Source: an uncultured Prevotellaceae bacterium
GTDB lineage: Bacteria > Bacteroidota > Bacteroidia > Bacteroidales > Muribaculaceae
NCBI GenBank assembly: GCA_900319525.1
Contig: ONOU01000001.1
Location: 186,001 to 250,000, forward strand
DNA length: 64,000 bases
Reading direction: 5' to 3'
Part shown: piece by piece, positions 13,750-34,055 of the stretch
Position numbering within the stretch: the stretch's first letter is position 1
How the letters are laid out: every line of letters starts with the position of its first letter
Program-made: the position numbers and the translations under genes
The notes under the pieces: model-generated
Database searches by the model: none
The model's input: only the letters and a program-made list of their open reading frames with translations
What the model was told of the DNA's origin: nothing

Positions 13750-15993
13750 ATGAGAAATCTAATTACTATTTTTATGTTTTTGTTCTCACTCAGCTTGCAT
13801 GCGCAAGTAGAGCTTCGTTATAATGGAGACAAAAGACCTTCTCGTAATTTCAAGACTGATATGATTCATGCTGATTTATTGCCAAATTTCAGCGCTGACA
13901 AGCTTAACGAAGCGAACACCATATTTGAGGAGGACAGAATACGTTACTACATCATTAATGATGATGAGGTGGGTGTTACTCATAAAGATCCTAATGATGA
14001 AATTAATTACACACAAGATACTATCATTATTCCCGAACACGTGTTACACGATGGTCATAATTATATTGTCAGTGCAATTGGCAACTATGCATTTACACTT
14101 TGTCAGAATCTTAAGAAGGTAGTGATACCAAACACTGTCACATCCATTGGCTATTACGCTTTTTATAAATGCAGTTCGTTAACCAGCATCTGTCTACCTG
14201 AATCCTTAGATATTATTGATTATGGAGTTTTCGATGAATGCACATCATTAAAAGATGTAACAATCCCTTCATCGATAAAAACTATTGGTGTTTATGCATT
14301 TGATGAATGTACCGAGTTGTCCACAGTATATGCTTCTGATTTAAATTCTTGGTGCCAAATTGATTTTTGCTCCATCACATCCAATCCTCTTATTTATGCC
14401 CAACATCTTGTTATTGATGGTGAAGAAATTACCGATTTAGTTATTCCCAACTCAGTGACAGACATCAAGCCATTCAGTTTCACGGGTTACTCTGGACTTA
14501 AAAGTGTTACTTTTCCCAATTCGGTAAATAGTATTGGACGAGAAGCATTTTCTTACTGCTTCAATCTTACAGACATTGATTTTGGTGATGGTATCACAAC
14601 GATAGACTATCGGTCGTTCTTTGATTGTGAGAATCTGACAAATATGACGTTACCGACAAGTCTCACGTACTTATCACATGGTGCATTCAGTTTCTGCAAT
14701 GGACTCACTAGCATAGATATCCCTGATGCTGTTATCTCAATGGGGAATTATGTTTTCTATGGATGCGAAAATTTGAAGTATGCATCATTTGGATCGTCAT
14801 TAGAATCCGTTCCAGTACAGACTTTTGCAGAATGTAAAAGCATTCATTCTGTTAGATTAAATGAATCTCTTACATCTATTGACGATGAGGCTTTCCATAA
14901 TTGCCGTTGTCTTATCGATCTGGACCTGCCTGATAATGTAAAGAGTATAGGTAATTCTGCTTTTAAAGGTTGCCACGGTTTTACTGAAATCATGATTGGA
15001 GACGGAGTTGAGTCAATCGGCAATAGAGCGTTTGAAAGTTGCATTAATTTGAAAAATGTTACCATACCTAACGTCTCTTCGTTAGGTGATTTTGTATTCA
15101 ATGCATGCTGCGATCTAAAAAGTGTCACTTTAGGCGATAACTTGTCAAGTATGGGTAAGTATGCATTTATGAATTGTACATCTCTCACCAATGTTGATCT
15201 GGGCAATGGTATAAAAAACATCAGTGACAGTGCTTTCATGGATTGCTCGGGCCTAGAGAGAATGCTAATCCCTAATTCAGTCATCGAAATCGGCAAAGGC
15301 GCTTTCCAGAATTGTCTTTTGCTGGAGGAACTCAATCTGGGTAATATGGTGCAAAAGATAAGAGGACACGCTTTTTATCATTGTTTAGGCCTCACTAATG
15401 TGTTAATCCCCAATTCGGTGGAAACTATTGGCGACTACACATTTGCCGACTGCAAAGCTTTGGAGCACGTGTCATTTGGAAATTCTTTGAAGACAATCGG
15501 CCAATATGCATTCACCAATGATACTGAATTGACGAGTATTACACTACCTAATACGGTGACAAGTATTGGCATTCACTCATTCTCATATTGTAATAAATTA
15601 AACTCGGTAAGTCTTGGCAAATCATTGACAACTATTGGAGCGAATTCATTCTTCATGGACGACTGTTTGACTTCGATAACTTGCAAATCGGTAACACCTC
15701 CATCATTACCAGCAATCACTCCTCATCTGCAACATAATACTACACTTTATGTGCCTATAAAATCGTTGGAACTCTACAAGAGTACTTTTCCTTGGAAATG
15801 GTTTGATCATATCATCGGTCAGATTGATGCTGATGTGAACGGTGACAATGAAATCAACATTGCCGACGTGAACGCTGTCATTGATACCATTCTCGGCGAT
15901 GATAGTAACACCGAATTGCAAGATGTGAATGGCGACGGGGAAATCAACATTGCCGACATAAACGCCATCATAGCTGCTATCCTGGGCGAGTAA
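13750..15993 (+). CDS. secreted BspA-type leucine-rich repeat protein with dockerin-like tail
   Basis: A 747-residue exported protein. A signal peptide (residues 1-19, ending SLHAQ) is followed by about 70 residues of unique sequence. Some 20 BspA/TpLRR (LRR_5) repeats of about 23 residues come next, with the recurring pattern IPNSVTSIGYYAFYKC-x-SLTS. After the repeats comes a small domain and a C-terminal pair of calcium-binding loops, DVNGDNEINIADVNAVI and DVNGDGEINIADINAII, which form a dockerin type I-like module. Such proteins usually bind host or bacterial surfaces. Its codons are richer in A and T than those of pgk and pta on either side, and it sits between two copies of a 74-bp repeat, which suggests acquisition as a unit. 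Confidence 0.85.
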   Translation: MRNLITIFMFLFSLSLHAQVELRYNGDKRPSRNFKTDMIHADLLPNFSADKLNEANTIFEEDRIRYYIINDDEVGVTHKDPNDEINYTQDTIIIPEHVLHDGHNYIVSAIGNYAFTLCQNLKKVVIPNTVTSIGYYAFYKCSSLTSICLPESLDIIDYGVFDECTSLKDVTIPSSIKTIGVYAFDECTELSTVYASDLNSWCQIDFCSITSNPLIYAQHLVIDGEEITDLVIPNSVTDIKPFSFTGYSGLKSVTFPNSVNSIGREAFSYCFNLTDIDFGDGITTIDYRSFFDCENLTNMTLPTSLTYLSHGAFSFCNGLTSIDIPDAVISMGNYVFYGCENLKYASFGSSLESVPVQTFAECKSIHSVRLNESLTSIDDEAFHNCRCLIDLDLPDNVKSIGNSAFKGCHGFTEIMIGDGVESIGNRAFESCINLKNVTIPNVSSLGDFVFNACCDLKSVTLGDNLSSMGKYAFMNCTSLTNVDLGNGIKNISDSAFMDCSGLERMLIPNSVIEIGKGAFQNCLLLEELNLGNMVQKIRGHAFYHCLGLTNVLIPNSVETIGDYTFADCKALEHVSFGNSLKTIGQYAFTNDTELTSITLPNTVTSIGIHSFSYCNKLNSVSLGKSLTTIGANSFFMDDCLTSITCKSVTPPSLPAITPHLQHNTTLYVPIKSLELYKSTFPWKWFDHIIGQIDADVNGDNEINIADVNAVIDTILGDDSNTELQDVNGDGEINIADINAIIAAILGE

Positions 15994-26859: not shown

Positions 26860-27564
26860 TCAGTTCTTGAGTGAATAGGTGACGGTGGTGACGACACGCA
26901 CTTTCTTGATCCACGGGGTATACTCGTCACGGTTCTCGATGGAGAACTGGCCCTGGTCGGCACTCACGATCTTGTTGAGCTTACTGTGCGAGTTCTTGGC
27001 AAACTGCTCGGCAGTAACCTGAGCGTTCTCGATGGCTTCTTGCATCATCTTGGGCTTCATCTCCTTGAAGGCAACAAATTCATACTGAATCTGATTCTCA
27101 TAGCTGTCACCCGTGATGGCCACACCCTCGCGCAAGAGGTCGCCCTGCTTGGCAATGAGCTTGCGCACCTGGTCCACGTTCTTGCTCGTTACCGTAAGCA
27201 CAGAAGTCACGATATAGCGGTAGGCCCGATTACCAGAGTCATACTCGCGGGCGGTCAAATCGACTACTTGAGGCGCATTCTGGCTGATCTCTTCCTCCTT
27301 TATACCGCCCTTGATCAAGAAAGCCTTGATTTTGCCCTGAGTGGCAGCGATGCGGTCATAGAGGCCTGGCAGATCGTTGCCCACCTCCTTCGAGACGATG
27401 GGCCACGTTACTTTGTCGGCAGGCACTTCCTGCTCGGCAAGTCCCTTAACACTGACCTTACGGTCCTTGCTGGCAAAGTCATCGATACCAGCCTTGATAA
27501 ACCAGCCCAGACAAAACACGCTCAGCGCGATGAGGGCCGACGAAATAATCATTTTCTCTTTCAT
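26860..27564 (-). CDS. SIMPL (DUF541) domain protein
   Basis: A 234-residue protein with one N-terminal membrane segment (residues 7-25) and a SIMPL/DUF541 domain. The domain starts at the [18 protein letters not shown] segment, a form of the family's conserved opening, and carries repeated beta-alpha units including [20 protein letters not shown]. Family members are periplasmic or membrane-anchored proteins of unclear role, linked in some bacteria to oxidative stress. It is monocistronic and lies at the edge of the AT-rich island. No consensus -7 element was found upstream. Confidence 0.8.
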
Positions 27565-27734
27565 TATAGTTGCCTTTTAAAAAACGTGTAATGTGTTTAG
27601 TTAAAAACTCAATTGCATCAATAACTGCAAAAAGTGCGCCATATTGTGTGAAAACCGAAGAAAAATTCACATCAATCGAAAAAAATATCATCAACTCAAT
27701 GATAATCATATTGTGGCAAAATAATCAAATAATA

Positions 27735-27766
27735 TTTGGATAATTGAAGAATTGTGAGTATTTTTG
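27735..27766 (+). promoter_or_regulatory. promoter of the structured RNA
   Basis: TTTG at 27735-27738, a 20-base spacer and TATTTTTG at 27759-27766 form a full Bacteroidota promoter. The next protein start on this strand is almost 400 bases away, beyond a terminator. Confidence 0.65.
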
Positions 27767-27771
27767 CAATC

Positions 27772-28000
27772 GTAAAATCAATTAAAATCATCTGCCTATG
27801 TAGCATAATCAATTGAAGACATTATAATAAAAAAGCGTTAGCTTTATTCTTGCTTTCTAAAAATCGGCAAATTTGAAGAAGCACCAAGAGTAAAAGTGTG
27901 ACGCTCACGCTATACGCGTGGGCTTTTACTCGGATATGGTGCATAGGTGTTTGCCGATACCTTAGAAAGCGTAGACGAAGTATCAGTCCGCGTTTTTTTA
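27772..28000 (+). ncRNA. structured non-coding RNA candidate with nested long hairpin and terminator
   Basis: The gap 27565-28162 has no gene; this transcript fills most of it. Its core is one long interrupted hairpin, 27852-27970. GCTTTCTAA pairs with TTAGAAAGC (27852-27860, 27962-27970), TCGGCAAA with TTTGCCGA (27864-27871, 27950-27957), GCACCA with TGGTGC (27881-27886, 27937-27942), GAGTAAAAG with CTTTTACTC (27888-27896, 27923-27931), and an apical CACGC with GCGTG. An intrinsic terminator follows (GCG-TA-GAC / GTC-CGC, 27969-27991, then seven T). All arms pair without mismatch. The rod shape with internal bulges resembles 6S RNA, but no sequence hallmark proves that. Confidence 0.65.
27969..28000 (+). 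terminator. terminator of the structured RNA
   Basis: GCG at 27969-27971 and GAC at 27974-27976 pair with GTC at 27986-27988 and CGC at 27989-27991, followed by G and seven T. Confidence 0.6.
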
Positions 28001-28053
28001 TTGTCTATACCCAACACCCATGGACTGAAAAAAGCAAATGGACGAAATGGATG

Positions 28054-28084
28054 TTTGTCAGATAAACACAGTAACCTAATTTTG
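28054..28084 (+). promoter_or_regulatory. promoter of the radical SAM peptide cluster
   Basis: TTTG at 28054-28057, a 19-base spacer and TAATTTTG at 28077-28084 match the Bacteroidota consensus exactly, 78 bases before the first gene of the cluster. Confidence 0.7.
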
Positions 28085-28162
28085 TGAAGGGTTTGCAAAA
28101 ACAGTATTCAAGTTCATTTCAAAACTAACAATTATTCACTAATTTAATTATAGAATGCTTTT

Positions 28163-28744
28163 ATGTTGTACATTGTTTTAATTTCTATTATAGCATTAAT
28201 TATTTATGCTGTCGTAAAGTGGTGGAATAATATCGAAGAGCCTGTTGAAGGATGGGGCGGCGATCCCATACATAATCTGATGGCAAAAGCAAAAGAAGGT
28301 AACGCTGAGGCTTGTTTTGAACTAGCTCGTGCATTTGATGATGAGGAGTATAAAAAATGGAAATATAATGGACATCGTCAGATCAATCATGAAACAGCTT
28401 TTAAATTTTGTATGAAGGCTGCAGAATTAGGTCATGCAGATGCCATGTTCTACTTATCGCTGTTCTCTAATCCAGATAACGGCGGATTTATAAGTATCAA
28501 GGATGCATTAGCATGGGTCGAAAAAGCAGCAGAAAACGGATCTATACCGGGTTTGATTACGTTAGGCCAAGAATACGAACAGGGGCTGCGTGGACGAATC
28601 AAAGACCTCAATAAAGCAAAGGATTACTATCATAAAGCAATTGAGGCATATCAAAAACAAGGTGATGGCGGAGATTGGTCTGCTAACGCCGCTGAAGAAG
28701 GCTTGCAGAGAATATCAGTTGAAGAGACACTTTCAACAATGTAA
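28163..28744 (+). CDS. membrane-anchored Sel1-repeat protein
   Basis: A 193-residue protein with one N-terminal membrane helix (residues 2-20) and three Sel1/TPR-like repeats. Examples are AAELGHADAMFYLSLFSN near residue 95 and AAENGSIPGLITLGQEYEQG near 130. Such repeats bind partner proteins. It is the first gene after the cluster promoter and ends 2 bases before the radical SAM gene, so the two are probably translated together. Codons are AT-rich like the rest of the island. A scaffolding or immunity role is possible but not shown by the sequence. Confidence 0.7.
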   Translation: MLYIVLISIIALIIYAVVKWWNNIEEPVEGWGGDPIHNLMAKAKEGNAEACFELARAFDDEEYKKWKYNGHRQINHETAFKFCMKAAELGHADAMFYLSLFSNPDNGGFISIKDALAWVEKAAENGSIPGLITLGQEYEQGLRGRIKDLNKAKDYYHKAIEAYQKQGDGGDWSANAAEEGLQRISVEETLSTM

Positions 28745-28746
28745 CT

Positions 28747-30312
28747 ATGACGATACATTCTTCTACTAAGCAGATTTTTCGTCCAATTTGGACTTGCGGC
28801 AAATATCATGAGACAGGAAAGGTCGCAATTTATTACAATCTGTTGGATGGGGTAAGTTACCTATTTGAGGATTATTCTGCTCTTGTCGTTTCGTTTTTGC
28901 TGGCTTTACCAAGAAATGGAAGCACAACTGTTGAAAAAATTGCCCAAAAAACAGGAATTGCAATAGAGAGCCTCTCACCTTTTATCCAGGAACTTATTGA
29001 TTTGCAATTAATTGCCAATCATAAACCCACAAATGATGAAATTGAGAATTATCGGAAATCTATCGCTGATAAAAGAATAAAAGATGTCCAATCTTTGGTC
29101 AAAACGACAAAAGAAAAACTGCCTTTAGCGATAAGTAATGCTGAAATGGATTACACAGAAAAGGCGGGCGGAATTACCAGTGTAATGTTGGAACTCACCT
29201 ATAACTGCTCAGAGAAATGTATCCATTGCTATAATATTGGAGCAACCAGGAATGATAATGAAGTGAGCTATAGAAGCAACCTACAAGAATTATCACTCGG
29301 TGACTAACGGCGCATAATTGATGAGTTGATTGAACAGGGTCTTACAAAAGTATGTCTTTCTGGAGGCGATCCGTTTTCTAAGCCTGACTCATGGGAAATT
29401 ATCGACTACTTATATCAAAAGGGAATCGCTACCGATATTTATACCAATGGGCAACGATTAATTAATGATGTTGAAAGATTAGCGAACTATTTCCCTCGTA
29501 CAGTTGAAATATCTATTTATAGTGGTGACGCAGATACTCACGATGCCATTACACGTATAAATGGATCATGGCAAAAATCTATTTCTGTTATTGAACAACT
29601 GTCATTATTAGGAGTGCCAACAGTGATTAAATGCTGTGTGATGAGACAGAATGTGAAGAATTATTACACTGTTGGTGGCCTGGGAAGGAAATATGGTGTC
29701 CCTGTTCAGTATGAACTTAATATCACAGACTCTATTGAAGGTGACAAATGTGCCAGCCAATACATAAGGTTGACACCTGAAATGATGGATATTGTCCTTC
29801 AAGACGACAACACCCCGATGTATGTGGGAAAAGAGGCACCCAATTTCGGAGGACAACCACGTCTGATGACAATAAATGCCTGCGGTGCAGGTTACAACAC
29901 TTTTTGCATCACACCAGATGGAGATTTAATCCCATGTTGCGCTTTTCATCAATCTTTTGGCAACTTGAAGAACAGCCATATTAATGAAATACTACGAAGT
30001 GAATCACTCTCAGAATGGCAGATGTTGACATTAGATCAATATGAGGATTGTGGCAAGCATGATTACTGTGACTACTGCAACCTGTGTGCTGGAAACAATT
30101 ACTCAGAGCACGGTGATGCCACCAAGGCAGGGGAAAACAACTGTTATATGGCAAAGTGTCGCTTTAAATTAGCACATAGATTGATGAACGGAGAGAGACC
30201 GCTTAATCCAACGGAAATAAAAGAAAGGCTCCAGCATATAACGACAACTGATTCTCAGCAGATCATGAGAGTTTTTTCCTTTAATAACGAAGGAAGAACA
30301 AATAAGAGTTAA
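28747..30312 (+). pseudogene. radical SAM/SPASM peptide maturase interrupted by one in-frame TAA
   Basis: One reading frame of 521 codons spans an entire radical SAM/SPASM maturase except for a single TAA at codon 187 (29305-29307). Residues 25-90 resemble a PqqD-like peptide-recognition domain (YNLLDGVSYLFEDYSALV). The 4Fe-4S motif NCSEKCIHCYN has Cys154, 158 and 161. After the TAA the same frame continues with RRIIDELIEQGL and the SAM-binding SGGDP at 205-209. The C-terminal SPASM domain has CGAGYNTFCITPDGDLIPCC and a second cysteine group from CGKHDYCDYCNLC onward. Downstream sequence shows no other damage. It may be a recent nonsense mutation, a suppressed stop, or a sequence error. The cluster context marks it as a modifier of a small peptide. 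Confidence 0.8.
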
Positions 30313-30375
30313 ATGGTAGGTGGGTAAATGGACTTCCCCAAGAAATAGTCCTACAACATTAAATCTATAAATACT

Positions 30376-30480
30376 ATGAACGTAGATTTAAAGATTAGCA
30401 AGGCATCAGAGGTAGTTACTATGTCTAATTGCGCAAAGACAAGTCAGCCCTCATGCGGTATTATGTATCGCAGCTTCTAA
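30376..30480 (+). CDS. 34-residue putative RiPP precursor peptide
   Basis: A short gene 63 bases after the radical SAM gene. The product starts MNVDLKISKASEVVT, a polar leader-like segment, followed by a 19-residue end, MSNCAKTSQPSCGIMYRSF, with cysteines at positions 19 and 27. The upstream sequence is A-rich, as Bacteroidota starts require. Eighteen bases after its stop stands a perfect 14-bp hairpin (30498-30535), as often seen after abundant precursor genes. Position behind a maturase, size, two cysteines and the attenuator support a ribosomally made, post-translationally modified peptide. The cysteines could become thioether bridges; that is inference. Confidence 0.55.
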   Translation: MNVDLKISKASEVVTMSNCAKTSQPSCGIMYRSF

Positions 30481-30497
30481 ACAACAGTGATGCTATA

Positions 30498-30539
30498 GCG
30501 GATATAGGCATCAAAACTATCATGCCTATATCCGCTTTT
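30498..30539 (+). terminator. attenuator-like hairpin after the precursor gene
   Basis: GCGGATATAGGCAT at 30498-30511 and its exact complement at 30522-30535 enclose a 10-base loop, followed by TTTTG. It lies between the peptide gene and the next gene of the same operon, so partial termination would raise the ratio of peptide to downstream products. Confidence 0.65.
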
Positions 30540-30563
30540 GATTCCTCAAAGATTAAATTAATT

Positions 30564-31391
30564 ATGAATCCAATTAGTGCGTCAGAATACAATTATCAAA
30601 TTTTGTGCATGAATGATACATGTGAACAAGTACATCCACTACTTAGAGATATTAATGGAAGTAAGCTCATGTATCTTATTAGTCCCCATCATGGACGAAG
30701 TTACGTTATGTCGATATGCAATGACAAATACATTGTAAGTAAAGGGAATGGGTTGAGCTATACTCAACATGGATTTCTAAATTCAGGTGAATTTGGTGAT
30801 GACACATGGGGGTTGCTCTTGAGAAAAGATGCTATAAGAGATTATAATCTGGGATTTGAAATCTCAGATTTAGGGATAAAAACGAATACGATGGAATGTG
30901 TTGTTGAGTTGGATACTGATATAATTCTGCCTAACATGTGCAGATTACATCCAATCTTATTACAGTATTCAGTTGAATGTCCTTACCGAATATGTGATAC
31001 CGCATATATGACACGAGATACATTATTCGATATAGTCAAGAAATGGCCCACCTCTCATAAATTCAATAAACCATATCTTATAGCAGCTGACATTCTCGTT
31101 CACAACCTCAGAACGCTTCATGACAATCAGATATTACATAACGCGATTCATCCTCAGAACTATACATGGGCTTTAGAACTATTAGATTTTGAATTGTCTT
31201 GCAGTCCTCAATACCCCTATGACTCTGACGATGATCGAAGACATGCCAAGGAACTCTTTACACGAGAGATCATACAGACTTACGATATCATAAATCATAT
31301 AGCCTGGAGTCTTAATGAACAAATAGATTACTCGGCAGTTGATAACATATTTGATGAATATGGATTTAACCTATCATCACTAAAAGTCTGA
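30564..31391 (+). CDS. uncharacterised kinase-fold-like protein of the peptide cluster
   Basis: A protein of 275 residues from the ATG at 30564, which has an AT-rich open upstream region. In-frame ATGs at 30522 and 30453 are less likely, since they lie in the hairpin stem or inside the peptide gene. I do not recognise the family with certainty. The segment LHNAIHPQNYTWALELLDFE matches the active-site spacing of SelO-type pseudokinases (H-x6-N-x8-D-[YF]): His192, metal-ligand-like Asn199 and Asp208. The preceding RKDAIRDYNLGFEISDLGI resembles the helix of that fold. It could phosphorylate or adenylylate the peptide or a partner. Similarity is judged by eye only. Confidence 0.45.
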   Translation: MNPISASEYNYQILCMNDTCEQVHPLLRDINGSKLMYLISPHHGRSYVMSICNDKYIVSKGNGLSYTQHGFLNSGEFGDDTWGLLLRKDAIRDYNLGFEISDLGIKTNTMECVVELDTDIILPNMCRLHPILLQYSVECPYRICDTAYMTRDTLFDIVKKWPTSHKFNKPYLIAADILVHNLRTLHDNQILHNAIHPQNYTWALELLDFELSCSPQYPYDSDDDRRHAKELFTREIIQTYDIINHIAWSLNEQIDYSAVDNIFDEYGFNLSSLKV

Positions 31392-31398
31392 AACAATT

Positions 31399-31725
31399 AT
31401 GGTCATTATTGTTCTTGGTTTTGTTATCGTCATATTCATAATTATCGCAATCATTCAGTTTTACAACAAGTCTGATATTGGGAAGTCGCTCATGCTCATG
31501 TATATCATGCAGATGAATGGTCCCAACTCGATTGTGAGGATTGACTTGCTACAAGACATCATCCGCAAAATGCTGGCCAAGGATGGAGTTGAGGTGTCCG
31601 ACATCAGCTTGGTTCACGAGATGGGAAACCGTTACCACGGCATACTGTCTGCCAATGGAGAAACACACGAGATGACTGTCATTGCAGACAATTCAGGTGC
31701 CCTCCACTATCAGCTTCTCAACTGA
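31399..31725 (+). CDS. small membrane-anchored protein, last gene of the peptide cluster
   Basis: A 108-residue protein with a strongly hydrophobic N-terminal helix (residues 2-22) and a cytoplasmic or periplasmic domain of about 80 residues with predicted helix and strand content, ending ADNSGALHYQLLN. I do not recognise a family. It begins 7 bases after the kinase-fold-like gene and is followed by a long inverted repeat. Its second half uses more G and C in third positions than the rest of the cluster. Like the Sel1 protein at the other end it is anchored by one helix, so the cluster may work at the membrane. Confidence 0.6.
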   Translation: MVIIVLGFVIVIFIIIAIIQFYNKSDIGKSLMLMYIMQMNGPNSIVRIDLLQDIIRKMLAKDGVEVSDISLVHEMGNRYHGILSANGETHEMTVIADNSGALHYQLLN

Positions 31726-31732
31726 AATGATA

Positions 31733-31809
31733 ACAACTGAATAATCTGAGTCTTCTGATTTGTCAGAATAGAGCGACAATAATTCAGAAGATTCAGAGTA
31801 TTCAGTTGT
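31733..31809 (+). terminator. long inverted repeat ending the peptide cluster
   Basis: The arm from 31733 to about 31760 pairs with 31781-31809 over about 28 bp with a few mismatches. ACAACTGAATA and TATTCAGTTGT are exact at the ends. TTGTTAAAAATAAAAAA follows. It lies between the cluster and the converging toxin gene and may end both transcripts. Confidence 0.65.
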
Positions 31810-31833
31810 TTGTTAAAAATAAAAAAAATGTGG

Positions 31834-32106
31834 TTACTTGTCTTGGTAATGCCCTTTGGCGGTTAGGATGAGAACCTTGACGACATCATCGTAAATATCA
31901 TAGATGAGTCGGTCTTTCTTGGTGATATGTCTTGAATAAGTTATATCATTTCCCTTTAGTAAGGGTTCTGGATGACCTGTTCCTTCTCGTGGATGAATTT
32001 GCATCTCGCCCAACATCTTGGCAATTTTTTTGAAAGCCATCGGGTTCGATTATTTGTATTCAGCCAGTTCTTTCTTTGCCGTTCTTGAAAAATCAATGCT
32101 ATACAT
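31834..32106 (-). pseudogene. yoeB: YoeB-family toxin interrupted by one in-frame TAA
   Basis: Reading from the ATG at 32106 gives MYSIDFSRTAKKELAEYK, then TAA (32050-32052), then SNPMAFKKIAKML and an intact rest of YoeB in the same frame. The remainder holds GTGHPEPLLKGNDITYSRHI, DRLIYDIYDD and the final KGHYQDK with the catalytic-type His-Tyr pair. YoeB is a ribosome-dependent mRNA interferase of about 85-90 residues, and the full frame here has 89 coding codons. The stop replaces what is often a lysine. A shorter protein could start at the ATG at 32040, but it would lack the first strand. It begins 9 bases after the antitoxin stop. Confidence 0.8.
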
Positions 32107-32115
32107 CTTATTGAT

Positions 32116-32370
32116 TTACAGTGATGTCAAGAAATCATTCAATTCCTCTGCATTGTTGACAGCTGTGGTTTCTCCAGCCTTAAATTCTTCTCTGGCTTGT
32201 GCTATGCGTTTCTGGGTATCCTCGTCGAGGCAATTCTCAACAGGAACACGATTCAGCATAAACAATTCTTTCCCTCGGCATATCAAGATAGAAACGCCTT
32301 GGGCCGCTAAGTCAAGAAAATGCTTCTGATTTTGGCGGAATTCAGTTGTAGTCAGTTCAATAGTATCCAT
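32116..32370 (-). CDS. yefM: YefM/Phd-family antitoxin
   Basis: An 84-residue antitoxin of the Phd/YefM type, which binds DNA through its N-terminal half and neutralises YoeB with its C-terminal tail. The opening MDTIELTTTEFRQNQKHFLD and ILICRGKELFMLNRV are typical of Bacteroidota members. The start at 32370 is preferred to an upstream in-frame codon because it fits the family and leaves the operator upstream. It is intact while the toxin gene behind it is broken, so the module would be inactive or only regulate itself. Confidence 0.88.
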   Translation of the reverse strand: MDTIELTTTEFRQNQKHFLDLAAQGVSILICRGKELFMLNRVPVENCLDEDTQKRIAQAREEFKAGETTAVNNAEELNDFLTSL

Positions 32371-32371
32371 T

Positions 32372-32412
32372 TTGTACGATATTTGCAATTATTTTGTACA
32401 AAATTAGTACAA
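32372..32412 (-). promoter_or_regulatory. YefM/YoeB operator overlapping the promoter
   Basis: TTGTAC and GTACAA (32394-32412) flank the 7-base centre AAAATTA, and another TGTAC lies at 32373-32377, just before the start codon. The core TGTACA (32395-32400) is the known hexamer of YefM operators. The minus strand also reads TAATTTTG at 32399-32406, so the -7 element lies inside the palindrome, as expected for autorepression. Confidence 0.7.
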
Positions 32413-32492
32413 TATTCTGAAACCGCAAATAATTTCCATATTTAAAAGTCGAAAACCTTCATTGTTTTCGATTTGAGAACGAAGCCATTTAG

Positions 32493-34055
32493 TTAGTGCA
32501 TGGTCTCGGCGAGAGCTTCGGCGCAGCGTTCGCCGTCGATGGCGCTGGAGACGATGCCGCCGGCATATCCCGCGCCCTCGCCGCAGGGATAGAGGCCCTG
32601 AAGGGTGATGTGATGCAGCAGCGTGGTGTCACGGGGAATGCGCAGAGGCGAGGAGGTACGGGTCTCGACACCTATAACGACAGCGTCGTTGGTGAGGAAG
32701 CCACGGGCATTCTTACCAAAGATCCTGAAACCCTTGCGCAAGCGGTTAGCGACAAAAGGCGGCATCCACTGGTCAAGGCGTGAAGGCTGCACACCAGGCA
32801 GATAGGATGACGGTGGAATGTTGCGTGAAGACTTACCGTCAACAAAGTCCTTCATGCGCTGAGCTCCAGCTATCAACGAGTTGCCGGCCTCGGCAAAGGC
32901 GCGGCGTTCCATATCCCGCTGGAACATCATCATCGCCAGCACACCATATTTCTTGTACTGGTCAGGCAAGTCCTCGGGATGCAATTCCACAACCATGCCC
33001 GAGTTGGCCCAGTGCGAGCCGCGGTTGCTAGGCGACATACCATTGACCACAAGACCATCGGCCTCGCTCACCGCCGGGACGACAAAACCGCCGGGACACA
33101 TGCAGAAGGAATACACGCCACGGTGGTCCACCTGGGTTACAAAATTATATTCAGCAGCTGGAAGGTACTCTCCACGGCCCAGGACGCTGTGGTACTGAAT
33201 CTGGTCGATGATGCGCTGGGGATGCTCAAGCCGCACGCCCACGGCAATTCCCTTGGCTTCCAGAGCGATACCGCTCTCGTGAAGCATCTGGTAAACGTCG
33301 CGAGCCGAATGGCCCGTCGCCAGGACAACAGGGCCTTCAAAGCCTTCACCGGTAGCGGTTTCAACACCAGTCACCTTGTCACCATCAACGATCAGGCGGG
33401 TCACACGCGTGTTGAAATGCACCTCACCACCACAACGCAGGATGGTCTCGCGCATCGCCTTGATCACGCCAGGCAACTTGTCACTACCGATGTGAGGATG
33501 AGCGTCGATAAGGATGTCCTCGCGGGCGCCATGCTGTACAAAGATGCCCAGCACGCGGTCAACCGACCCACGCTTCTTGCTGCGGGTGTAGAGTTTGCCG
33601 TCACTATAGGCGCCTGCCCCACCCTCGCCATAGCAGTAGTTGCTCTCGGGGTCGATAACGCCTTCACGCTGGATGCGTGAAGCGTCGATGCGTCGATTCA
33701 TCACATCCTTGCCGCGTTCCAGTACGATGGGCTTGATACCCAACTCAATGAGACGTAATGCTGCAAACAATCCCCCAGGCCCCATGCCCACAACAATGGC
33801 TTGCCGCTTGCCGTCCACGGGCTTGTACTCGATGGGCGGCACAAGGTAGTCCTGTGTCATGGGCTCATCGATATAGACGCGCACCTTAAGATTAACCACC
33901 ACATTGCGCTGACGCGCATCGATGGAGCGCTTTAATATTCTGAGTCCCTGAATGTGCTCTATAGGAATGTCATTGTTTTTAGCCAGATGCCGAGCTATGT
34001 CGCCTGTGCTGGCTGCCGTGCGCGGGTTGACACGCAATTGAAGTTCTTGAATCAT
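32493..34055 (-). CDS. FAD-dependent oxidoreductase of unknown substrate
   Basis: A 520-residue flavoprotein of the family of uncharacterised FAD-dependent dehydrogenases found widely in Bacteroidota. After about 95 residues with a small N-terminal domain comes the Rossmann motif IVVGMGPGGLFAALRLIE, followed by VVLATGHSARDVYQML and the C-terminal GEGAGYAGGIVSSAIDG that closes the FAD site. The substrate is unknown. The ATG at 34055 (MIQELQLRV) was chosen because it lies just behind the TAATTTTG element; a longer frame upstream would run through both divergent promoters. It is monocistronic. Confidence 0.8.
   Translation of the reverse strand: MIQELQLRVNPRTAASTGDIARHLAKNNDIPIEHIQGLRILKRSIDARQRNVVVNLKVRVYIDEPMTQDYLVPPIEYKPVDGKRQAIVVGMGPGGLFAALRLIELGIKPIVLERGKDVMNRRIDASRIQREGVIDPESNYCYGEGGAGAYSDGKLYTRSKKRGSVDRVLGIFVQHGAREDILIDAHPHIGSDKLPGVIKAMRETILRCGGEVHFNTRVTRLIVDGDKVTGVETATGEGFEGPVVLATGHSARDVYQMLHESGIALEAKGIAVGVRLEHPQRIIDQIQYHSVLGRGEYLPAAEYNFVTQVDHRGVYSFCMCPGGFVVPAVSEADGLVVNGMSPSNRGSHWANSGMVVELHPEDLPDQYKKYGVLAMMMFQRDMERRAFAEAGNSLIAGAQRMKDFVDGKSSRNIPPSSYLPGVQPSRLDQWMPPFVANRLRKGFRIFGKNARGFLTNDAVVIGVETRTSSPLRIPRDTTLLHHITLQGLYPCGEGAGYAGGIVSSAIDGERCAEALAETMH

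What the first reader, a model, noticed from the sequence alone, without database searches (positions are those of the whole stretch)
28054..31809. Candidate new RiPP-type gene cluster with a radical SAM/SPASM maturase and a 34-residue cysteine peptide
A consensus promoter, a Sel1 membrane protein, a radical SAM/SPASM enzyme with a PqqD-like N-terminal domain, a 34-residue peptide gene, a hairpin, a kinase-fold-like protein and a small membrane protein follow each other with short gaps and end at a long inverted repeat. Radical SAM/SPASM enzymes with such N-terminal domains modify ribosomal peptides (established for the families). The combination with a kinase-like protein and a two-cysteine peptide does not match a described Bacteroidales system that I can name, so novelty is inference.
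Basis: partly seen in the sequence, partly recalled or inferred. Interest (0 to 1): 0.85.

Follow-up and report, generated by a model that had tools for sequence, protein, structure and literature searches.

The report
Radical-SAM peptide system with RNA pseudoknot
Some Bacteroidales bacteria carry a compact gene set that probably makes a chemically modified small peptide: a radical-SAM enzyme, a tiny peptide gene behind a conserved RNA knot, and usually a kinase-like protein; the copy in this window has a stop codon inside the enzyme gene.

Summary
In detail: a radical-SAM/SPASM maturase, a 34-residue peptide and a kinase-fold protein lie in a row. Eighteen compared loci show that these three form the conserved unit. 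A 31-36-residue peptide follows the maturase in 18 of 18; in 15 it ends in C-x(7)-CGxx[YW]R; the kinase-like gene is present in 13. The Sel1 and small membrane genes recur only in the closest relative, L014. Beyond general radical-SAM and SPASM domains, no scanned family fits maturase, peptide, partner or RNA.

(2) A stem-loop follows the peptide gene in 17 of 18 loci. (3) The kinase-like protein resembles the AMPylating pseudokinase SelO/YdiU in a fold search, but on a low-confidence model.

The window's own maturase has an in-frame stop; intact copies exist elsewhere. The cluster is an accessory island: nine close relatives have an empty site, and it looks recently exchanged.

Best reading: a new radical-SAM RiPP class, usually with a SelO-like partner, perhaps acting inside the cell. 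Chemistry and function are inferred.

The parts
28054..28084 (+). Bacteroides-type promoter (TTTG-N19-TAnnTTTG) before the Sel1 gene
   Evidence: exact match; 11 in the window against 1.0 expected in shuffles
28163..28744 (+). Sel1-repeat protein, 193 aa; accessory (found again only in L014 of 17 other loci)
28747..30312 (+). radical SAM/SPASM maturase with N-terminal RRE/PqqD-like domain; window copy interrupted by an in-frame TAA at 29305-29307; intact relatives exist
30321..30351 (+). H-type RNA pseudoknot upstream of the peptide gene (stem 1 TGGG/CCCA or GGG/CCC, linker TAAAT, stem 2 GGACT/AGTCC)
30376..30480 (+). 34-residue precursor peptide, end C-x7-CGxxYR
30497..30536 (+). 15-bp stem-loop followed by TTT after the peptide stop (terminator or 3'-end stabiliser)
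30564..31391 (+). SelO-like kinase-fold protein, 275 aa (KGNG, HNAIHPQN, DFE motifs)
31399..31725 (+). small membrane protein, 108 aa; accessory (found again only in L014 of 17 other loci)
31728..31815 (+). long inverted repeat, terminator-like end of the operon
   Evidence: MFE -39.8 kcal/mol, z -9.0
27668..32506 (.). accessory island between a SIMPL-like gene and an FAD/NAD(P)-oxidoreductase-like gene; nine relatives carry a short empty site. Gene names of the flanks are recalled from sequence, not scanned

Best explanation
This is a radical-SAM RiPP system. The maturase binds the conserved N-terminal part of the peptide (MKxxLxI..xS) through its RRE-like domain. It then makes one or more cross-links in the C-terminal C-x7-CGxx[YW]R segment; candidates are Cys thioethers or a bond involving the aromatic-Arg pair. 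A SelO-like kinase-fold protein, present in most loci, then acts on the peptide or on the product's target, using ATP (nucleotidyl or phosphoryl transfer). A pseudoknot before and a stem-loop after the small gene set how much peptide is made relative to the enzymes. No exporter is shared among the loci, so the product may well work inside the cell, as a cofactor or signal. Shown: gene order, conservation, RNA covariation, island. Inferred: every catalytic step and the function. In the window's strain the maturase is interrupted, so the pathway is probably off there.
For: CX3CX2C (C154, C158, C161) and eight further C-terminal cysteines (C379, C387, C397, C435, C441, C444, C447, C466) are invariant in the 10 maturases aligned, of 18 loci. 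Solved relatives by sequence: SkfB, PqqE, cytosylglucuronate decarboxylase, and 5wgg (CteB by recall). Foldseek top hits include SuiB with and without its peptide, and SkfB. The N-terminal 110 residues are predicted at pLDDT about 90, strands then helices. A peptide ORF follows in 18 of 18 loci, 11-243 nt after the stop. Invariant in the 10 peptides of A3: M1 L5 S8 S11 C19 C27 G28 Y31 R32; outside A3, L031 has K at 8 and W at 31, and L033 has L at 8. Ka/Ks 0.04-0.22 among the peptides of L015/16/17/19, on 6-13 changes per pair. Leader kept while the core differs in L032 and L034. Kinase-like gene in 13 of 15 CGxx[YW]R loci and 0 of 3 others; no copy anywhere in the genomes of the 5 loci that lack it, at E<=0.001. 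In 247 family genomes it was found in 3, all with the maturase. All-against-all comparison of 250 neighbouring ORFs of at least 60 aa: only maturase (18 loci), kinase-like protein (13), and a Ser/Thr kinase (9) with a regulator (7) recur in more than three loci. Pseudoknot on 15 rows: 92.6% of cells paired, 7 of 9 pairs with changes on both sides, covariation 0.565 against 0.149 shuffled, 0 of 500.
Against: No modification was observed. No leader protease or exporter is shared; only L012 has an M42 peptidase next to the peptide. L012 and L013 have the CGxxYR peptide but no kinase-like gene. No hydroxyl residue in the core is strictly conserved (Y31 is W in L031; position 33 is S, N, A or R), which speaks against direct AMPylation or phosphorylation there. 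The kinase-like model has pLDDT 54; the SelO profile comparison is weak (score 24.3; reached by 3 of 150 shuffles; the best of 100 shuffles was 25.2), and neighbouring canonical kinases score higher over 73 columns (33.0). Kinase presence is not clustered on the maturase tree beyond shuffles. L020, L032 and L034 peptides were picked among several short ORFs by context.
Confidence: 0.66

Rival explanations
1. A peptide-derived redox or electron-carrier cofactor, as with PQQ or mycofactocin: the maturase prepares the C-terminal CGxxYR residues, host peptidases trim the rest, and the kinase-like protein attaches a nucleotide or phosphate to the small product.
For: Tiny precursor with a conserved C-terminal part; no exporter family shared. 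The maturase scores among its best families with the mycofactocin and PqqE models, though far below cut-off. M42 aminopeptidase beside the peptide in L012. The MftA end GMCGVY, recalled and from no call, resembles CGxxY.
Against: No dehydrogenase, glycosyltransferase or peptidase family recurs in three or more loci; the core differs in L020, L032, L034, unusual for a cofactor.
Confidence: 0.25
2. A secreted bacteriocin or signal peptide of the usual kind, exported by an unlinked transporter; the kinase-like protein gives immunity or regulation.
For: Accessory island with recent exchange and empty sites; patchy distribution, 5 of 247 family genomes; core replacement in three loci.
Against: By eye no double-glycine motif or signal sequence in the peptide; no transporter family shared in three or more loci. 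The CGxx[YW]R core is kept in loci of five different family labels (f1, f28, f73, f81, f101), which fits a fixed role better than an arms race.
Confidence: 0.2
3. The kinase-like protein is a true but divergent Ser/Thr kinase or an inactive scaffold, not SelO-like.
For: Profile comparison with neighbouring Ser/Thr kinases is stronger over 73 columns (33.0 against 24.3 with SelO; SelO itself scores 17.1 with them). PDB sequence search names kinases weakly (E 0.038 and 0.83). The HRD Asp position is Ala and the SelO loop Asp position is Gln in 12 and Glu in 1 of 13.
Against: All nine Foldseek hits with probability 0.99-1.00 are SelO/YdiU or an uncharacterised protein among them, though none has E below 0.001. 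The SelO alignment spans 161 columns in order; none of 150 shuffles reached its score over 140 or more columns.
Confidence: 0.35
4. The cluster is a decaying remnant without function.
For: In-frame stop in the window's maturase and an internal stop in L013's fragment.
Against: Open maturases in the other 16 loci; Ka/Ks 0.07-0.24 for all island genes between window and L014.
Confidence: 0.05

Closest known systems
Radical-SAM RiPP maturases (SkfB, SuiB, CteB, AlbA, PqqE)
   Same: CX3CX2C, SPASM cysteines, N-terminal peptide-binding-like domain, adjacent small peptide gene
   Different: Far below the cut-offs of the 25 best NCBIfam families shown for L014; the 8 peptides scanned match no NCBIfam family; no paper held radical SAM, RiPP and SelO together, and the single papers found with AMPylation or pseudoknot are on other subjects by their listings
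SelO/YdiU protein AMPylase (PF02696)
   Same: Foldseek ranks 1-9 (one of them an uncharacterised protein); ordered motifs KGxG, R[DE], LGI.T, H-x6-N, D[FY]; HRD Asp missing in both
   Different: 275 residues against 480-537 in the six SelO rows; no SelO match in 13 members; the Asp of SelO's TDN is Gln or Glu here
Bacteroidales RiPP clusters of PMC10352776 (passages read)
   Same: Bacteroidales, rSAM/SPASM enzymes with RRE-like extension, short precursors
   Different: The passages describe PCAT transporters, double-glycine leaders and pseudo-rSAMs; none is seen here
preQ1-I, SAM-II and other H-type pseudoknot riboswitches (recalled)
   Same: Small H-type pseudoknot in a leader
   Different: No Rfam match at the pseudoknot: none at E<=1 in window 27500-32600 (three chance matches elsewhere), none at gathering score in 9 loci

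Membership tests
radical-SAM RiPP system | rSAM/SPASM enzyme with cluster-binding cysteines | tested here: met
   Pfam matches over cut-off; cysteines invariant in the 10 rows aligned
radical-SAM RiPP system | conserved small peptide gene adjacent to the maturase | tested here: met
   18 of 18 loci; in L020, L032, L034 chosen among short ORFs by position, leader or RNA context
radical-SAM RiPP system | peptide-recognition (RRE/PqqD) domain | tested here: inconclusive
   confident strand-helix N-terminal domain; no Pfam PqqD match; domain not fold-searched alone
radical-SAM RiPP system | conserved leader with variable core | tested here: inconclusive
   leader kept in L032 and L034 with different cores; L020 differs in both
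radical-SAM RiPP system | SAM-dependent modification of the peptide | not testable with these tools
   needs mass spectrometry
named NCBIfam rSAM maturase families | score over the curated cut-off | tested here: not met
   the 25 best of 50 families for L014, each far below cut-off; cut-offs for the other 9 members were not printed
mycofactocin (TIGR03962) | maturase over 265 bits | tested here: not met
   89 bits for L014
SelO/YdiU | Pfam PF02696 match | tested here: not met
   no SelO match in any of 13 members at E<=10 (filters drop most above about 0.1)
SelO/YdiU | SelO fold | tested here: inconclusive
   top nine hits, prob 0.99-1.00, E 0.002-0.011, TM 0.37-0.38, on a model with pLDDT 54
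SelO/YdiU | catalytic loop HGVxNTDN | tested here: not met
   HNAIHPQN; Asn kept, preceding Asp replaced
Rfam families | score over gathering threshold at the pseudoknot | tested here: not met

The most novel reading that the evidence does not exclude
A new RiPP class in which a radical-SAM enzyme cross-links a C-x7-CGxxYR peptide and a dedicated SelO-family relative then nucleotidylates the peptide or its target, giving an intracellular peptide cofactor or second messenger; its synthesis is tuned by a previously undescribed H-type pseudoknot that may sense a ligand or bind the maturase.
Probability: 0.25. Interest if true: 0.9.

Novelty: new variant of a known kind. Interest (0 to 1): 0.72.

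Why it matters
It would add a RiPP class with no shared exporter and a SelO-like partner, in bacteria (Bacteroidales) that are common in guts and whose peptide products are little known (general knowledge and PMC10352776, passages). What SelO does in bacteria is, to my knowledge, largely open; a partner gene with one obvious small candidate substrate would make it testable. The pseudoknot is a strongly covarying cis-acting RNA that no Rfam family matched and that was found only with this system among the genomes searched.

Tried and rejected
Known maturase families: rejected for the families shown, all below cut-off. Plasmid carriage: no maturase match in 72,556 plasmid records; viral contigs: 26 pattern matches, none confirmed. 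Spread outside Bacteroidales: none in 316 phylum-wide genomes beyond the own one, which bounds the sample only. Defence system: PADLOC gives only general viperin-type rSAM similarity for the maturase. SelO kinship by sequence: hhalign on 13 kinase-like and 6 SelO rows is not significant by itself; a first attempt used wrongly picked SelO reading frames and was dropped. Kinase gain or loss on the tree of 16 maturases (window and L013 left out): 4 changes, no clustering beyond shuffles; L034 and L020 branches are long. For alignment A8 I dropped L020, L033 and L034, whose MAFFT placement was off; one search covers all 18 singly. That search looks only for this topology; shuffles reached the observed score in 0 to 14 of 100 (L033 0, L020 0, L034 7), and L018's top-scoring arrangement differed from the common one. 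So single sequences are weak and the covariation is the evidence. Even there one measure is ordinary (further pair types 12 against 9.2, 35 of 500), the outer pair of stem 1 is unpaired in 10 of 15 rows, and related rows inflate such scores. Stem-loop after the peptide: on the stricter measure of one unbroken stem only 12 of 18 beat at least 95 of 100 shuffles. Promoter: an exact consensus lies within 500 bases upstream in only 4 of 16 loci, and L014's is a different site from the one at 28054. NADAR neighbour: only L016 and L018. The viral structure library was not used; the second PDB comparison was unavailable. Paper searches used: 8 of 10.
Full report
OBSERVATION. The region reads as described. 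The promoter at 28054-28084 is exact. The Sel1 gene, the maturase, the 34-residue peptide, the hairpin, a kinase-like protein and a small membrane protein follow, and a strong inverted repeat closes the set. The maturase has an in-frame TAA at 29305-29307, so the window holds two pieces, of 186 codons before and 334 after the stop. A DNA search of the own genome found one copy.

RELATED LOCI. Searching the second maturase piece in 247 family genomes gave 5 with a match, own included. A scan of the collection of 84,980 species genomes with six short patterns gave 7 confirmed loci. A profile search in 393 genomes of the order gave 7, own included. A profile search in 316 genomes of the phylum found only the own genome. 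I compared 18 loci: the window, L010-L020 and L029-L034. The named ones (L014-L020) are MAGs titled Prevotellaceae, Prevotella, Phocaeicola or Bacteroidales.

THE CONSERVED UNIT. A 31-36-residue ORF follows the maturase on the same strand in 18 of 18 loci, 11-198 nt after its stop in 17 and 243 nt after an internal stop in L013. In 15 it ends in C-x(7)-CG-x-x-[YW]-R. Invariant in ten aligned rows are M1, L5, S8, S11, C19, C27, G28, Y31 and R32. Outside those rows, L031 has Lys at 8 and Trp at 31, and L033 has Leu at 8. In L032 and L034 a leader-like start is kept but the rest differs; in L020 both differ. These three are chosen by position, leader and RNA context. The kinase-like gene lies behind the peptide in 13 of 18 loci: window, L010, L011, L014-L019, L029, L030, L031 and L033. 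The five genomes of L012, L013, L020, L032 and L034 have no match to its profile (G116, home of L013, is 81% complete). So it goes with 13 of 15 CGxx[YW]R loci and 0 of 3 others. In 247 family genomes it was found in three, each with the maturase. Of 395 phylum genomes only the own genome matched. Sel1 and the small membrane gene were found again only in L014. Grouping 250 neighbouring ORFs of 60 aa or more, only four families occur in more than three loci: the maturase (18), the kinase-like protein (13), a Ser/Thr kinase family (9) and a regulator family (7). None of the families shared by three or more loci looks like a transporter or protease (judged by eye from the list). L012 alone has an M42 aminopeptidase after the peptide (277 bits).

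MATURASE. Radical_SAM and SPASM domains pass Pfam cut-offs. The CX3CX2C and C-terminal cysteines are invariant in ten rows. No NCBIfam equivalog among the 25 best shown for L014 is near its cut-off. By sequence the nearest solved proteins are SkfB and PqqE. By predicted structure (mean pLDDT 62, N-terminal 110 residues about 90) they are BlsE, SuiB, SkfB and others.

KINASE-LIKE PROTEIN. No Pfam family matches convincingly in any of 13 members. The model is weak (pLDDT 54), yet the nine Foldseek hits with probability 0.99 or more are SelO/YdiU or an uncharacterised protein among them; their E-values are 0.002-0.011. A profile alignment to six SelO proteins runs in order through KGxG, R[DE], LGI.T, H-x6-N and D[FY], but its score (24.3) is reached by 3 of 150 column shuffles, though by none over 140 or more columns. 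Canonical kinases from neighbouring genes align better over the catalytic loop region alone (33.0). There the HRD Asp is Ala, while the metal-binding Asn and DF Asp stay. PMC12599244 (passages) lists SelO's loop as Hgvmntdn. PMC8097203 (passages) describes flipped ATP and Asp262 in SelO. Kinase fold: likely. SelO-like: probable. Activity: open.

PSEUDOKNOT. Between maturase and peptide lies a 31-nt H-type pseudoknot, 24 nt before the ATG (window 30321-30351). On 15 aligned rows, stem 2 is paired in all cells, and stem 1 in all cells of its three inner pairs; its outer pair forms in 5 of 15. Seven of nine pairs change on both sides. The covariation score is 0.565 against 0.149 in shuffles (0 of 500 reach it), and at most 0.198 when slid. 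Three rows left out of that alignment were examined singly (shuffles reaching the score 0, 0 and 7 of 100). A covariance model with stem 2 only matched 9 of 11 carrier genomes; all nine had given rows to the model, so this is by construction. What is informative is that each has one match, apart from a second one in G017, and that in 198 family genomes, with stricter filters and E<=0.05, only four match, all carriers. G318 and G451 are missed by the model. No Rfam family matches there. Behind the peptide, 17 of 18 loci have a stem-loop of differing sequence (MFE z -2.3 to -7.8; L032 z -0.4); 12 of 18 pass the stricter unbroken-stem control.

ISLAND. The right-hand flank gene was found in 31 of 41 genus genomes. 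Of 29 relatives whose locus was returned, the left flank gene lies within the locus in 11: in nine the two genes are 110-245 bases apart without the cluster, in L046 and L050 further apart; in the other 18 it was not found within the 1.5-kb flank. Homology to the nine ends near 27668 and resumes near 32506. Between the window and L014, synonymous divergence is 0.10-0.29 in the island genes but 0.85 in the left flank and 0.67-1.73 in three right-flank genes. The island was therefore probably exchanged more recently than its surroundings. L014's likeness is thus not independent evidence; the other loci are.

MECHANISM AND NOVELTY. The anatomy fits a RiPP: a small gene with conserved leader, a dedicated maturase, and RNA signals that may tune the small gene. 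The core's conserved C, C, G, [YW] and R are the likely sites. Lack of a shared exporter suggests, without proving, an intracellular product. Paper searches found no paper with radical SAM, RiPP and SelO together. One paper holds radical SAM, AMPylation and RiPP; by its listing it is a staphylococcal pan-genome study. One holds RiPP, precursor peptide and pseudoknot; by its listing it concerns interlocked peptides. The Bacteroidales RiPP survey (PMC10352776, passages) describes other architectures. Only open-licence papers were searched.

Noticed in passing
window 31834-32388 (-): YoeB-like toxin (Pfam E 4.5e-12) with an antitoxin by position beside the cluster; no YoeB match in L014, while L044 has both beside the same flank gene: a separate insertion.
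   Followed up: partly
window 27836-27985: Large imperfect hairpin upstream of the operon (150 nt, MFE -57.1, z -6.2); one copy in the own genome apart from matches of about 20 bases. Role unknown.
   Followed up: partly
L012 6299-6340 (-): Second copy of the pseudoknot after the M42 peptidase gene, followed by what looks like a decayed precursor ORF.
   Followed up: partly
L018 5030-5134: SAM-I/IV riboswitch (58.2 bits, gathering 41.1) directly before a NADAR-like gene (just below the Pfam cut-off) downstream of the cluster; a related gene lies downstream in L016.
   Followed up: partly
L012, L015, L017, L019, L020, L030, L031, L032: A regulator-like gene beside a Ser/Thr kinase gene lies within about 5 kb of the cluster in these 8 loci; such pairs may be common in these genomes, so chance was not excluded.
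   Followed up: no
window 14368-15666: Region similar to a repeat-type protein downstream of the peptide in L013 (E about 1e-18).
   Followed up: no
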